This document shows, in pieces, positions 22,008 through 44,349 of a DNA stretch of 49,938 bases; position 1 is the first letter of the stretch, and every line of letters begins with the position of its first letter. A program made the translations under genes and the position numbers. The notes below the pieces were generated by a model. The model had not been told where the DNA came from, ran no database searches, and saw only the letters and a program-made list of their open reading frames with translations. Source of the DNA: Gemmatimonadaceae bacterium (GTDB lineage: Bacteria > Gemmatimonadota > Gemmatimonadetes > Gemmatimonadales > Gemmatimonadaceae); contig JACDDT010000011.1 of the NCBI GenBank assembly GCA_013816855.1, positions 1-49,938 on the forward strand, read 5' to 3'.

Positions 22008-22227
22008 GGGGGCATCCCAACGGGTGGGAGTACACGGTGTACTAAAGCGGGGAGCTGTAAGCTGACTAAAGCTCTATAGCTCGAAGCTATTCATTTGCAC
22101 GAAAGAGACACTTACGCATCGATTCGCGTAGCAGGAATCACGGTATGAAAGCTTACAGCAGCTTGGCTGAAAAGCTTAAAGCTCCCTGCTTTGGTACTCG
22201 CAATTCCGTCCGCCGTTGGGATGGCCC
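22008..22227. repeat. 220-nt structured intergenic element, copy A
   Basis: One of two related non-coding copies in this window (other: 44130-44349, same length by the same boundaries, most positions identical). Nested inverted repeats: outer GCATCCCAACGG (22012-22023) with CCGTTGGGAT (from 22213); GTACTAAAGC (22039-22048) with GCTTTGGTAC (22188-22197, one G-T wobble); GGAGCT (22051-22056) with AGCTCC (22180-22185); AAGCT-a-TTCAT (22084-22094) with ATGAAAGCTT (22145-22154); and TACGC with GCGTA near the tip. It lies between the convergent carboxylate-amine ligase and mpl genes. It has no credible ORF. Candidates: structured RNA, remnant or non-autonomous element of a mobile family such as IS200/IS605, or a bidirectional terminator. 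Similarity to copy B continues some 10-20 bases past both ends. Confidence 0.85.
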
Positions 22228-22265: not shown

Positions 22266-22332
22266 TCGCGAGGCCCGAAGCCCCCGGCCGGCTAGGCCGA
22301 AAGCCCCCGGCCGGTAGTCTTGATTGGCAGTT
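22266..22332. repeat. GC-rich intergenic repeat, copy 1
   Basis: Two units of the form CCCCCGGCCGG separated by a linker, ending in GGTAGTCTTGATT. The same end, CCCCGGC-T-GGTAGTCTTGATT, occurs at 38022-38105. Both copies lie just downstream of minus-strand genes (mpl and dnaE2). On the minus strand the sequence reads AATCAAGACTACC followed by G5C tracts and can fold as CCGGCCGG with a distal CCGGCCGG. It may act as a terminator or mRNA end structure, or be a dispersed chromosomal repeat. Confidence 0.65.
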
Positions 22333-38021: not shown

Positions 38022-38105
38022 CGCCGGAAAGGCCCGCAGCCGCCAGCCGGCTCGGCCCACGGCCCCCGGCCCCCGGCCCCCGGCTGGTAGTCTTGATTTG
38101 TAGTT
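38022..38105. repeat. GC-rich intergenic repeat, copy 2 (G-tract array)
   Basis: Contains three tandem GGCCCCC units and the shared end CGGCTGGTAGTCTTGATT. On the minus strand, downstream of dnaE2, it reads GGGGGCC three times followed by GTGGG, four G-tracts that could form a G-quadruplex, enclosed by CCAGCCGG and CCGGCTGG that can pair. Related to copy 1 at 22266-22332, which is also just past a minus-strand stop. The rest of the 207-base gap upstream of it (37902-38021) shows nothing I recognise. Confidence 0.65.
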
Positions 38106-41776: not shown

Positions 41777-44089
41777 ATGGCTTCTTCGAGAATACCCAGG
41801 GCGGACGAGAATACGCCTCTCTTTCCGGCATTGATCGCGACCGCGCTCGTCTTCGCGCTGTATCTCCTCACACTCGCGCCTTCGGTCGCGATGTGGGACA
41901 CCGGCGAATACATGGCAGCGGTGAAAGTGCTCGGCATTCCACATCCGCCGGGCAATCCGTTTTTCATGCTCCTCGGGCACGCCTTTGCGAGCATTCCCAT
42001 CCCGGTGTCTTACGCGGCGCGCGTAAACATTCTTGCCGCACTCGCGAGCGCGGGCTCCGCAGGAATCTGGTTTATCGTCATAGAGAGAATCACGGCGCGC
42101 TGGATCGAGCTGCGTTGGCAGCGGCTCGTCGTCGCAGCAGTCGGAACACTGATTGGAGCAACCGCGTTCACCGTTTGGAATCAGGCAGTCGTCAACGAGA
42201 AGGTTTATCCGGTATCGCTTCTCTTCGTCACCATCATCTCGTGGCTGACTATTAAGTGGATCGACGATCCCGACGCTCCACGCGCAGATAGGCTCTTGGT
42301 TCTAGTCGGATTTCTACTTGGGCTCGGATACGCAAATCACCCGGCGGGAATGCTGGCAGCTCCGGCAATAGCTGTCGGCATTCTTATCCGCAAACGCGGC
42401 CTCTACGGTGGGCTCGTCATCGTAGCCATTGCCCTGTTGGCGATTCTGCTCCGAATCGCGGGGGCGAGCGACTTTATCCAAACGTTAATCATCGGCATCG
42501 CTGCTATGGGCGCCGCTATATACGCGTTGGGTAGCAAGACAACGGCGTTGACGATCGCCGGTCTTCTCCTCGGCCTCACGCCTTTTATTTACGAGCCGAT
42601 TCGCGCAGCTCACTTCCCGGGAATTAACGAGGGTGCACCCACGGCGTGCGAGACGAAGCTCGAGGCGTCGTGCACATTCGACTCACTGACGTGGAAGCGG
42701 CTGATGTCGAACATCAATCGCGAGCAGTACGGCCCAAAACTCGAGCGCGGCGCTTCGTATCCCGAGCAGGTGGGAACGTGGTGGCTGTACTTCAAGTGGC
42801 AGTGGCTGCGCGACTCGCACAACGCGCACGCGGGATGGCAGGAATTCCTCGCGCTTCTCTTCCTCATCCTCGCCCTCACCGGCGGATACGTCCACTGGAA
42901 GGAAGACCGCGAGACATTCTGGTACATCGGCGCGTTGATGTTCACGATGACGCTCGCGCTCATCTACTACCTGAACTTCAAGTACGGATGGTCGCAGGAT
43001 CCGGGTTCGGAGCACGCGCACGAGGTGCGCGATCGCGATTACTTCTACGTCTGGAGCTTTTCCGCGTGGGGCATTTGGGCCTCGCTCGGTTTGGAGCTCA
43101 TCTGGTCAAAGTTTGCCGCAACGATCGCGAGCGGAGTGAAAGGCAAGAAAGACACGCGCGAAACCGCGGTGGCGGCCGATCGCTATTCCCGTGCGTTGCT
43201 CATGGCATCCCCCGTTCTTCTCCTCGCTCTCGTACCGCTCTTCGGCAATTGGAAGTACGCGTCCCGCGCGGGGCAACATTTCACGCAGGAATGGGCGCAC
43301 GATTATCTCAACTCGCTCGAGCCATACGCCATCGTCGTCACCAACGGCGACAACGACACATTCCCGCTCTGGTATGCGCAGGAAGTCGAAGGCGTAAGGA
43401 AAGACGTTACAGTGGCCGTTGCGACGTACCTCGGTACCGATTGGTATGTGCGGCAGATAATCCGCCGACCGATCGCGGACTACGACTCCATCAACGGTCC
43501 GGCGATTTACCGGGGGAAAACCTGGAAGAAGCCGTCCGGCCCGCCGCTCAAGATGGGCTTCGCGGAAGCGGACTCAATTCCCGAATACATCGAGCTGCGA
43601 GAGGCGAAAATTTTCAAGCAAGGCAACATCACGCTCAACATTCCGCCCGGTTATCTGACCCGCGACGAGCTCGTGTTGCTGCGCTTGATCAAGGACGCGA
43701 TGCCGGAGAGGCCGCTCTATCTCTCGACTGGAGCGGAGTCGGGAATAGGACTCGAGCCGTATCTGCTCACCCAGGGATATGTTCAGAAAATCATGCCGGA
43801 CCCCGTCCCCGAAAGTCCGGCGACGCCGCGTTTGTCAGGGCTGAACATTGATCTCGCGCGCACGAAAGCGCTCTGGTTCGGGGTTTATCGCGCGCCGGAC
43901 GCCATCATTAAAGAAGGGGATTGGATCGACCGGCCCTCGTACGGAATTCCTTATACGTACGCGTTCACCGGCGCGATTCTCTCCGAAGCGCTGGCGCGGA
44001 GCGGGGACGCGCGCGATGCATCCGTCGTCCTGGAGAAGGTGAAGAAGATCGTGAAAGCCGCGCGCATCGAAGGGTTCCCGATCGAGTAG
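41777..44089 (+). CDS. DUF2723 (GT117-like) multi-pass membrane protein
   Basis: A 770-aa membrane protein with about 10-12 helices in the first 510 residues and a soluble C-terminal part with alternating charged and Tyr residues. It matches DUF2723 (GT117, the TMEM260 relative): the first loop reads PSVAMWDTGEYMAAVKVLGIPHPPGNP, where the early Asp-Thr-Gly-Glu and the HPPGNP motif are the family's signature (quoted in parts: WDTGEY and HPPGNP). These are glycosyltransferases of the GT-C fold that use lipid-linked sugars to O-glycosylate exported proteins. It sits on the opposite strand between dnaE2/116-aa and imuB, separating the mutagenesis genes. Confidence 0.88.
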   Translation: MASSRIPRADENTPLFPALIATALVFALYLLTLAPSVAMWDTGEYMAAVKVLGIPHPPGNPFFMLLGHAFASIPIPVSYAARVNILAALASAGSAGIWFIVIERITARWIELRWQRLVVAAVGTLIGATAFTVWNQAVVNEKVYPVSLLFVTIISWLTIKWIDDPDAPRADRLLVLVGFLLGLGYANHPAGMLAAPAIAVGILIRKRGLYGGLVIVAIALLAILLRIAGASDFIQTLIIGIAAMGAAIYALGSKTTALTIAGLLLGLTPFIYEPIRAAHFPGINEGAPTACETKLEASCTFDSLTWKRLMSNINREQYGPKLERGASYPEQVGTWWLYFKWQWLRDSHNAHAGWQEFLALLFLILALTGGYVHWKEDRETFWYIGALMFTMTLALIYYLNFKYGWSQDPGSEHAHEVRDRDYFYVWSFSAWGIWASLGLELIWSKFAATIASGVKGKKDTRETAVAADRYSRALLMASPVLLLALVPLFGNWKYASRAGQHFTQEWAHDYLNSLEPYAIVVTNGDNDTFPLWYAQEVEGVRKDVTVAVATYLGTDWYVRQIIRRPIADYDSINGPAIYRGKTWKKPSGPPLKMGFAEADSIPEYIELREAKIFKQGNITLNIPPGYLTRDELVLLRLIKDAMPERPLYLSTGAESGIGLEPYLLTQGYVQKIMPDPVPESPATPRLSGLNIDLARTKALWFGVYRAPDAIIKEGDWIDRPSYGIPYTYAFTGAILSEALARSGDARDASVVLEKVKKIVKAARIEGFPIE

Positions 44090-44129: not shown

Positions 44130-44349
44130 GGGGGCATCCCAACGGCGGAAGGATTTCTGAGTACTAAAGCGGGGAGCTGTAAGCGAACTGAAGCCTCATA
44201 GCTCCAAGCCATTCATTTGCACGATGGAGACACGGACGCATCGGTTCGCGTAGCAAGAATCACGGTATGAAGGCTTACATCTGCTAAGCTGCCGAGCTTA
44301 AAGCTCCCTGCTTTAGTACTCCGTGTACTTTCACCCGTTGGGATGGCCC
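44130..44349. repeat. 220-nt structured intergenic element, copy B
   Basis: Second copy of the element at 22008-22227, the same length. Helices: GCATCCCAACGG (from 44134) with CCGTTGGGAT (from 44335); GTACTAAAGC (44161-44170) with GCTTTAGTAC (44310-44319, now fully paired); GGAGCT (44173-44178) with AGCTCC (44302-44307); AAGCC-a-TTCAT (44206-44216) with ATGAAGGCTT (44267-44276). The T-to-C and A-to-G changes relative to copy A keep that helix paired. It lies between the convergent DUF2723 and imuB genes. The conserved core also includes TTCATTTGCACGA and AATCACGGTATGAA. Confidence 0.85.

What the first reader, a model, noticed from the sequence alone, without database searches (positions are those of the whole stretch)
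22008..22227. A 220-nt structured element occurs twice, with compensatory base changes
Seen: copies at 22008-22227 and 44130-44349 have equal length, share long blocks (for example TACTAAAGCGGGGAGCTGTAAGC as parts TACTAAAGC and GGGGAGCTGTAAGC, TTCATTTGCACGA, TTCGCGTAGCA, AATCACGGTATGAA) and the same nested helices. In one helix, copy A pairs AAGCT with AGCTT and copy B pairs AAGCC with GGCTT: a U-A to C-G exchange that keeps pairing. Another helix has a G-U wobble in A and a plain pair in B. Selection on a folded RNA or ssDNA is the simplest explanation. Both copies sit between convergent genes and carry no ORF. Inference: a non-coding RNA family, a non-autonomous mobile element (IS200/IS605-like ends, IscB/HEARO omega-RNA type) or a bidirectional terminator class.
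Basis: partly seen in the sequence, partly recalled or inferred. Interest (0 to 1): 0.85.

Follow-up and report, generated by a model that had tools for sequence, protein, structure and literature searches.

The report
Mobile hairpin linked to IVP genes
The repeated 220-letter element looks like a gene-less copy of a tiny jumping DNA hairpin whose fuller copies carry one small ring-forming protein gene; genes of that protein family lie between inverted arms, often built of seven-letter repeats, in many bacteria.

Summary
Both copies exist and fold very stably (z -7.4, -8.1), yet paired changes do not exceed chance (4 pairs against 3.8 shuffled). The element is a multi-copy palindrome: 19 places on 15 contigs of this Gemmatimonadota genome. 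One place (contig C143) has the same arms around an intact gene of the four-helix-bundle "23S rRNA intervening-sequence protein" (IVP, PF05635). So the window copies are gene-less, MITE-like members of an IVP-carrying hairpin element; two other arm families searched here show the same pattern. Of 65 scored IVP genes of the order, 62 lie between inverted repeats (random places: 12 of 1275). In loci from many phyla the arms are enriched for seven-base repeats (lag-7 p 1.6e-40; 68 of 122 arms). A 23S rRNA IVS of Azospirillum has the same kind of arms. Empty sites in relatives show insertion; two of nine cyanobacterial/rRNA junction comparisons show 5-bp direct repeats, one perfect. IVP is under purifying selection (dN/dS 0.04-0.09, three pairs). 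Best reading: a small mobile element class, with rRNA IVSs as one niche and IVP binding the arms. Mobility and binding are inferred; the cutting enzyme is unknown.

The parts
22008..22227 (.). copy A of the 220-nt palindromic IVP-less hairpin element
   Evidence: 19 places in the genome; fold; alignments
22008..22023 (.). copy A, outer inverted repeat, left (GGGGGCATCCCAACGG)
22039..22089 (.). copy A, left arm: degenerate 7-nt array (AGC at spacings 7,7,10,8,7, counted by eye)
   Evidence: lag 7 highest of lags 4-11, both arms averaged; shuffle p 0.034 for this copy
22090..22143 (.). copy A, conserved core (TTCATTTGCACGA ... AATCACGGTATGAA)
22144..22199 (.). copy A, right arm (inverse of the left)
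22213..22227 (.). copy A, outer inverted repeat, right (CCGTTGGGATGGCCC)
44130..44349 (.). copy B of the same element; the syntenic site is empty in G009 and G017
44161..44211 (.). copy B, left arm
   Evidence: shuffle p 0.059 for this copy
44212..44265 (.). copy B, conserved core
44266..44321 (.). copy B, right arm
22273..22332 (-). arm sequence (80% identity) of a second hairpin family whose IVP-carrying copy is on contig C104, directly beside copy A
38032..38084 (-). arm sequence of that second family (one search match: 38032-38071, 90%); the only period-7 array of score 14 or more in the window

Best explanation
The 220-nt element is a non-autonomous (gene-less) member of a small mobile hairpin element family. 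Its complete form is: inverted arm - gene for IVP (PF05635, a four-helix-bundle protein; its solved homologue 2GSC is a pentameric ring) - inverted arm, roughly 400-700 bp. SHOWN: the same arms frame an intact IVP gene on contig C143 of this genome and in two relatives; IVP genes of this order nearly always sit between inverted arms; in loci from many phyla those arms are enriched for 7-nt tandem repeats; relatives have empty sites; two cyanobacterial insertions are bordered by 5-bp direct repeats; the IVP protein is under purifying selection in the three pairs that could be measured. INFERRED: the element moves, or moved, as DNA with a staggered target cut. IVP recognises its own arms, perhaps one heptamer per ring subunit in the way the TRAP ring reads spaced triplets (recalled); AG lies in the consensus of 81 of 92 arrays, and arrays have a median of 5.2 units. 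IVP then brings the two ends together. IVP made by full copies acts in trans on gene-less copies such as the window's. A still unidentified nuclease or transposase does the cutting. Classical 23S rRNA intervening sequences would be the subset tolerated inside rRNA.
For: Same ends with IVP: the 595-nt C143 element matches copy A at 90% over 50 nt and 92% over 51 nt, both arms, and carries PF05635 (E 2.5e-31). IVP-carrying elements of G011 (81% over 59 nt to copy A) and G004 (75% over 57 nt) have related arms. Two of the six other IVP arm families of this genome were searched; each has one IVP copy plus several inverted pairs too short to hold the gene. Inverted repeats flank 62 of 65 scored IVP genes of the order, against 12 of 1275 random placements and 4 of 101 small genes, one of those four being an IVP gene itself. 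Named loci not labelled Gemmatimonadota: 27 of 55 above 13, controls at most 12 in 64. Inverted beats direct arm similarity in 63 of 74 named loci, 9 the reverse, 2 ties (p 2.3e-8), and in 14 of 15 of the own genus, 1 tie. Lag-7 score in 160 IVP flanks: mean 12.7 against 4.3 in 459 control segments, p 1.6e-40. Annotated-gene control on seven cyanobacterial plasmid regions: arrays on both sides of 7 of 7 IVP genes against 6 of 290 others; inverted in 6 of 7 against 4 of 290, p 1.6e-9. Insertion: site B is empty in G009 and G017; Trichormus/Nostoc pair, 428-bp insert with a perfect GTAAT repeat; Nostoc pNsp_a/pNsp_c, TTCTA repeat read by eye. A 23S rRNA IVS with the same kind of arms: L252. dN/dS 0.04, 0.09, 0.09 in the 3 of 6 pairs with finite dS (domain region).
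Against: No direct repeats were found around 9 copies of the window's own family, and its outer boundary is not fixed: the B gap is 292 bp against 4 and 1 bp in empty sites, so about 70 bp more than the 220 nt differ. IVP has no known catalytic activity; no reverse transcriptase or Y1 transposase was found in the genome. The 7-nt signal is weak in the window family (shuffle p 0.003-0.085 per copy; lag 7 top in 7 of 8, copies not independent) and in the order generally: only 7 of 56 of its flanks, and 34 of 160 in all, pass the control 99th percentile of the best-lag score. Lag 8 shows a small excess too (p 0.001), and a 50-kb Nostoc plasmid region has as many period-8 as period-7 arrays (9 each). 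Only 2 of 9 junction comparisons could be read as target duplications; one was a loop replacement in 23S rRNA, six were unclear. About half the IVP genes outside Gemmatimonadota showed no strong inverted repeat (28 of 55 at 13 or less). In Pseudanabaena the arms are direct; in Picosynechococcus the best lag is 8 and in Gemmatirosa 11 and 8. 36 of 290 other plasmid genes have such an array on at least one side. IVP also lies in cas loci, where it could have a host role. No experiment shows movement or binding.
Confidence: 0.68

Rival explanations
1. An ordinary MITE of a conventional DNA transposon: a known-type transposase elsewhere moves these ends, and IVP is a passenger picked up between them.
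For: Inverted ends, short gene-less copies, 5-bp direct repeats in two relatives' elements: all typical of DNA transposons.
Against: The only gene noticed between these arms is IVP, and many unrelated arm sequences in many phyla also frame IVP. Y1 transposase not found. I did not search systematically for larger copies with these ends, and DDE and other transposase families were not searched.
Confidence: 0.15
2. A structured non-coding RNA family kept by selection on its fold.
For: Very low folding energy and a conserved core.
Against: No covariation above chance (low power), no Rfam match, absent at two syntenic sites of relatives; a palindromic element folds well for reasons of ancestry alone.
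Confidence: 0.07
3. IVP and its arms form a host-useful module (an autoregulated nucleic-acid-binding protein with its own binding sites), spread by horizontal transfer rather than by its own mobility.
For: Purifying selection; IVP inside cas loci (also PMC3936711, passage seen).
Against: In the three families searched in this genome gene-less copies outnumber the gene-carrying one; insertions between varied plasmid genes and in rRNA; arms mostly flank the gene symmetrically.
Confidence: 0.15
4. Bidirectional transcription terminator or REP-like palindrome.
For: Of 15 copies examined, 13 had a neighbour called on both sides: 5 convergent, 8 tandem, 0 divergent (crude gene calls).
Against: No U-tract terminators above chance; far longer than REPs; no REP-type (Y1) transposase found.
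Confidence: 0.04

Closest known systems
23S rRNA intervening sequences (IVS) encoding IVP / S23p (Leptospira, Coxiella, Azospirillum)
   Same: Hairpin with complementary ends around an IVP gene. [quoted passage not shown] An Azospirillum IVS found here inside 23S rRNA has period-7 arms.
   Different: The window copies are intergenic, not in rRNA, and lack the gene. In this genome several unrelated arm families occur, and the three searched each have gene-less copies.
MITEs (miniature inverted-repeat transposable elements)
   Same: Short, gene-less, inverted ends, multi-copy, beside a gene-carrying copy with the same ends.
   Different: The gene-carrying copy encodes IVP, not a known transposase; no target duplication found for the window family.
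Heptameric repeats: GGGAATC and GGGGA(C/T)T of Xanthomonas and Nostoc (PMC4692102), TAACTGA of Beggiatoaceae and cyanobacteria (PMC4679880)
   Same: 7-nt tandem units, mostly intergenic; in Xanthomonas often in inverted pairs (70 cases in one genome and 75 in another, PMC4692102). The solved pentamer 2GSC is a Xanthomonas IVP.
   Different: In the passages seen neither paper links the repeats to IVP; counts for 'four helix' and 'S23' were zero in both main texts. PMC4692102 found few inverted pairs in Nostoc and no repeats on its plasmids. The link to IVP is made here.
Avd of diversity-generating retroelements
   Same: PF05635 resembles Avd according to PMC10053308 (passage seen); Avd is a helper of a mobile genetic system.
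   Different: No reverse transcriptase found in this genome; no template/variable repeat pair was looked for.

Membership tests
23S rRNA IVS | lies within an rRNA gene | tested here: not met
   window copies are intergenic; no Rfam match in the window
23S rRNA IVS | complementary ends forming a long stem | tested here: met
23S rRNA IVS | encodes IVP (PF05635) | tested here: not met
   not in the two window copies; met in the same-armed C143 copy and in G004 and G011
23S rRNA IVS | RNA excised by RNase III | not testable with these tools
   needs RNA
MITE | short, gene-less, inverted ends, multi-copy | tested here: met
MITE | shares ends with a gene-carrying element | tested here: met
   C143, with IVP rather than a known transposase
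MITE | target-site duplication | tested here: not met
   window family, 9 copies; seen in two cyanobacterial IVP elements
IS200/IS605 or REP-RAYT derivative | Y1 transposase in the genome | tested here: not met
   genome about 95% complete
HEARO / omega RNA | match to the Rfam model | tested here: not met
   0 matches at gathering score among 4227 families; HEARO's presence among them is recalled
structured ncRNA family | covariation above chance | tested here: not met
   8 copies of one genome; low power
bidirectional intrinsic terminator | stem followed by U-tract on both strands | tested here: not met
DGR (Avd system) | reverse transcriptase | tested here: not met
   own genome only

The most novel reading that the evidence does not exclude
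IVP hairpin elements are a pan-bacterial class of minimal mobile elements: inverted arrays of 7-nt repeats around a single gene for a pentameric ring protein that reads the repeats, inserting into intergenic DNA with a 5-bp duplication and shedding gene-less copies. Two long-standing oddities, the 23S rRNA intervening sequences and the heptameric repeats of cyanobacteria and xanthomonads, would be a niche variant and debris of the same element.
Probability: 0.45. Interest if true: 0.9.

Novelty: new variant of a known kind. Interest (0 to 1): 0.78.

Why it matters
The function and origin of rRNA intervening sequences 'remain unclear' and S23p has no known function (PMC4990558, passages seen). 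TAACTGA heptamer repeats look horizontally transmitted 'but no mechanism is evident' (PMC4679880, abstract passage seen). If the arms are IVP's recognition sites, both questions become one testable system: one protein of about 120 residues, one 7-nt repeat, and natural empty/filled site pairs on plasmids of cyanobacteria. It would also give a function to a protein family found here in 35 of 41 genomes searched (own plus 40 relatives).

Tried and rejected
Rejected or led nowhere. (1) RNA-fold selection by covariation: not above shuffles. (2) RAYT/IS200 and reverse transcriptase in the own genome: none found. (3) The end pattern GTACYAAAGCRGGGAGCTKTAAGC in genome contigs: 0 hits; the record of this genome or of one near it may be left out there. 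(4) Empty site for copy A: the seven relatives compared have another gene between the flanking genes (it looks like DUF1697, named by eye), and some have other hairpins there, so no clean comparison. (5) Target duplication in the window family: 9 copies, best count 2, shuffled pairings 1-4. (6) A first inverted-repeat test with lax scoring was noisy, with long weak matches: 17 of 65 above the control 99th percentile and 2 of 65 above the control maximum. I then used stricter scoring and report that one, so the choice of scoring followed the first result. (7) Purine bias of arms: slight (mean 0.56, above one half in 41 of 68 arrays), not relied on. (8) Structure prediction: not available. (9) Of nine filled/empty comparisons (two, seven) six were unclear through divergence or extra sequence.

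Rows dropped before counts; of the 36 IVP loci L055-L090 I used 26; 7 of the other 10 were the same places as fetched regions and 3 lay at contig ends; 40 further regions were picked by hand's list, not at random, and that list was itself cut; L065 could not be scored; 6 of 80 loci too near a contig end; several of its Gemmatimonadota loci are the same places as; one 'unidentified bacterium' counts among the 55; 80 loci with usable flanks (23 of the order, 57 named); its control segments are mostly coding, hence the annotated-gene control; 61 of the 63 loci L178-L240; 14 of 18 plasmid records; 60 of the loci L178-L240 plus 14 plasmid loci; six of the 60 and one plasmid are Gemmatimonadota; seven plasmid regions chosen because they hold IVP; two are from one strain.

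Literature: 10 of 10 searches used. In the listings shown I saw no paper that ties IVP to heptamer arms or to mobile hairpins outside rRNA; this holds only for that library, those terms and the rows listed. Papers: PMC4990558, PMC3936711, PMC10053308, PMC11270868, PMC10910872 and PMC4679880 seen as passages; PMC4692102 as abstract, outline and passages. The TRAP comparison is recalled.

Full report
What was claimed.

Check. Both copies are at the stated places, 81% identical, between convergent genes, and fold far better than shuffles. The paired-change argument fails: with 8 full-length copies of the same genome, both-sided changes (4 pairs) equal the shuffled mean (3.8), and the quoted exchange is confined to copy B and broken in another copy. 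The good fold comes from the element being palindromic: an outer inverted repeat (GGGGGCATCCCAACGG / CCGTTGGGATGGCCC) and inner arms (GTACTAAAGCGGGGAGCTGTAAGC... / ...GCTTAAAGCTCCCTGCTTTGGTAC). No Rfam family reaches its gathering score.

Copies. A search of the own genome (2.47 Mb, about 95% complete) gives 36 matches that resolve to 19 places on 15 contigs; some are single arms, and two are contig-edge pieces, identical where they overlap, that may be one element. Of 61 genomes searched, 9, all of this genus, have a match; two of those relatives hold IVP-carrying elements with related arms.

The gene-carrying copy. [quoted passage not shown] IVP-carrying elements of G011 and G004 have related arms (81% over 59 nt and 75% over 57 nt to copy A). 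So the window copies are the gene-less form. The other six IVP genes of this genome each lie between other inverted repeats (all seven score above threshold). For two of these six arm families I searched the genome: each has one IVP copy and several inverted pairs too short to hold the gene, for example C83:16250/16376, C15:59727/59854 and C72:84/225 for one, and C169:16137/16270, C110:28515/28722 and C100:13850/13990 for the other. Arms of the second also lie in the window at 22273-22332 and 38032-38071. In relative G002, four short hairpins of yet another family lie within 10 kb; the one directly downstream of an IVP gene matches the other three at 89-93%.

How general. Among 65 scored IVP genes of the order, 62 are flanked by inverted repeats above the 99th percentile of random placements (12 of 1275 exceed it); 31 of 31 in the genus and 31 of 34 in other genera. 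Four of 101 small control genes exceed it: the top one is itself an IVP gene, the second lies between gene-less copies of an IVP hairpin family. The regions were picked by hand and the stricter scoring was chosen after a noisier first try (17 of 65). In 80 named loci (74 scored), 18 of 19 labelled Gemmatimonadota and 27 of 55 others score above 13, controls at most 12 in 64. The window's phylum is taken as Gemmatimonadota because the nearest IVP loci are from Gemmatimonadota records, two of which coincide in contig length and place with loci of relatives G004 and G011.

Seven-nt arms. Flanks of IVP genes carry tandem arrays with a period of seven: mean lag-7 score 12.7 against 4.3 in controls (p 1.6e-40), lag 14 likewise, other lags near control apart from a small excess at lag 8 (p 0.001). 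The effect comes mainly from named loci of other phyla; 34 of 160 flanks (7 of 56 in the order, 27 of 104 elsewhere) pass the control 99th percentile of the best-lag score, controls 4 of 459. 68 of 122 arms of named loci hold a period-7 array (controls 8 of 204), with a median of 5.2 units; the detection threshold favours longer arrays. AG is in the consensus heptamer of 81 of 92 arrays. Arms are more often inverted than direct (63 against 9, 2 ties). In cyanobacterial plasmids the pattern is plain to the eye, for example GGGAACA or CAGAAGT units on both sides. Of 14 fetched plasmid records 11 have lag 7 best on both sides (one flank of L251 only at control level), 1 on one side; in Picosynechococcus lag 8 is best on both sides, and in Gemmatirosa lags 11 and 8. 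Against the other annotated genes of seven plasmid regions, arrays on both sides occur at 7 of 7 IVP genes and 6 of 290 others (on at least one side, 36 of 290); inverted arms at 6 of 7 and 4 of 290, two of those four being direct neighbours of IVP. In Pseudanabaena (in a cas locus) the arms are direct, not inverted. The window family shows the period only weakly: lag 7 is the top lag in 7 of 8 copies, p 0.003-0.085 each, copies not independent. In one 50-kb Nostoc region period-8 arrays are as many as period-7 (9 each); I did not look at them.

rRNA link. One plasmid-borne IVP (Azospirillum lipoferum 4B, L252) turned out to lie inside a 23S rRNA gene (Rfam LSU match): a classical IVS. It has period-7 arms (score 13 on both sides), and a second rRNA copy in the same strain lacks it; there the IVS replaces a hairpin loop rather than simply inserting. 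The Coxiella IVS paper reports heptameric repeats and a terminal stem (PMC4990558, passages).

Insertion. At site B the convergent gene pair is conserved in three relatives: G009 and G017 have stop-to-stop gaps of 4 and 1 bp (counted by eye), against 292 bp in the window, and G004 has a different, partly masked hairpin there. About 70 bp more than the 220 nt thus differ, so the exact boundary is open, and no direct repeats were found around nine own copies. For IVP elements on plasmids, nine filled/empty comparisons were made. Trichormus plasmid C against Nostoc linckia gives a clean 428-bp insertion with a perfect 5-bp repeat GTAAT. Nostoc pNsp_a against pNsp_c gives TTCTA on both sides, read by eye, with one base difference beyond it. 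The Azospirillum case is a loop replacement. The other six were unclear: the second pNsp site has about 45 extra bases, and five have diverged flanks.

The protein. All seven own IVP frames are open. Three of six compared pairs have finite dS and give dN/dS 0.04, 0.09 and 0.09. The nearest solved structures by sequence are 2GSC (E 7.6e-31) and 2RLD; the Xanthomonas protein of 2GSC is a homopentameric toroid according to PMC4990558. Resemblance to Avd of diversity-generating retroelements is stated in PMC10053308.

Mechanism. Shown: anatomy, association, insertion, selection on the protein. Inferred: that IVP reads the arms, one heptamer per subunit; that full copies serve gene-less ones in trans; that an unknown enzyme cuts. 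No reverse transcriptase or Y1 transposase was found in this genome; other transposase families were not searched.

Verdict. The finding is real and more interesting than stated, but for another reason: not a fold under covariation, but a gene-less copy of an IVP hairpin element, with evidence for one anatomy from soil Gemmatimonadota to cyanobacterial plasmids to an rRNA intervening sequence.

Noticed in passing
window 22273-22332 and 38032-38084: Arm sequences of a second hairpin family (IVP-carrying copy on contig C104) lie beside copy A and near 38 kb.
   Followed up: partly
L151, L152, L156, L157, L158: Downstream of orthologues of the window gene 41777-44089, other hairpins of about 200 nt without a gene recur, with AACTGCAACTGAAC-like arms and a similar core (..GTCGGGACGT..GGCACA..TGTGCCCTGA..), read by eye; a separate family at the same spot in several species.
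   Followed up: no
L242, L243, L249: IVP genes inside cas loci of cyanobacterial plasmids (between cas6 and cas4; between cas10/cmr2 and cmr3). IVP in cas loci was reported in PMC3936711.
   Followed up: partly
L012 1380-1593 (contig C154): One copy of the window family continues into tandem repeats of about 26-30 nt that resemble its core (TTCATTTGCTCGTCACT..AACAGCTT).
   Followed up: no
L111 7300-8430 (relative G002): A pair of small genes that looks like a VapBC-type toxin-antitoxin system (named by eye, no family search) lies between two gene-less hairpins of one IVP family.
   Followed up: no
L255 29496-29625 and 46312-46392 (Nostoc plasmid pC052_D): Inverted heptamer pairs away from IVP; 9 period-7 and also 9 period-8 arrays in 50 kb (score 16 or more), none at periods 5, 6, 9 or 10. 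The period-8 arrays were not looked at.
   Followed up: no
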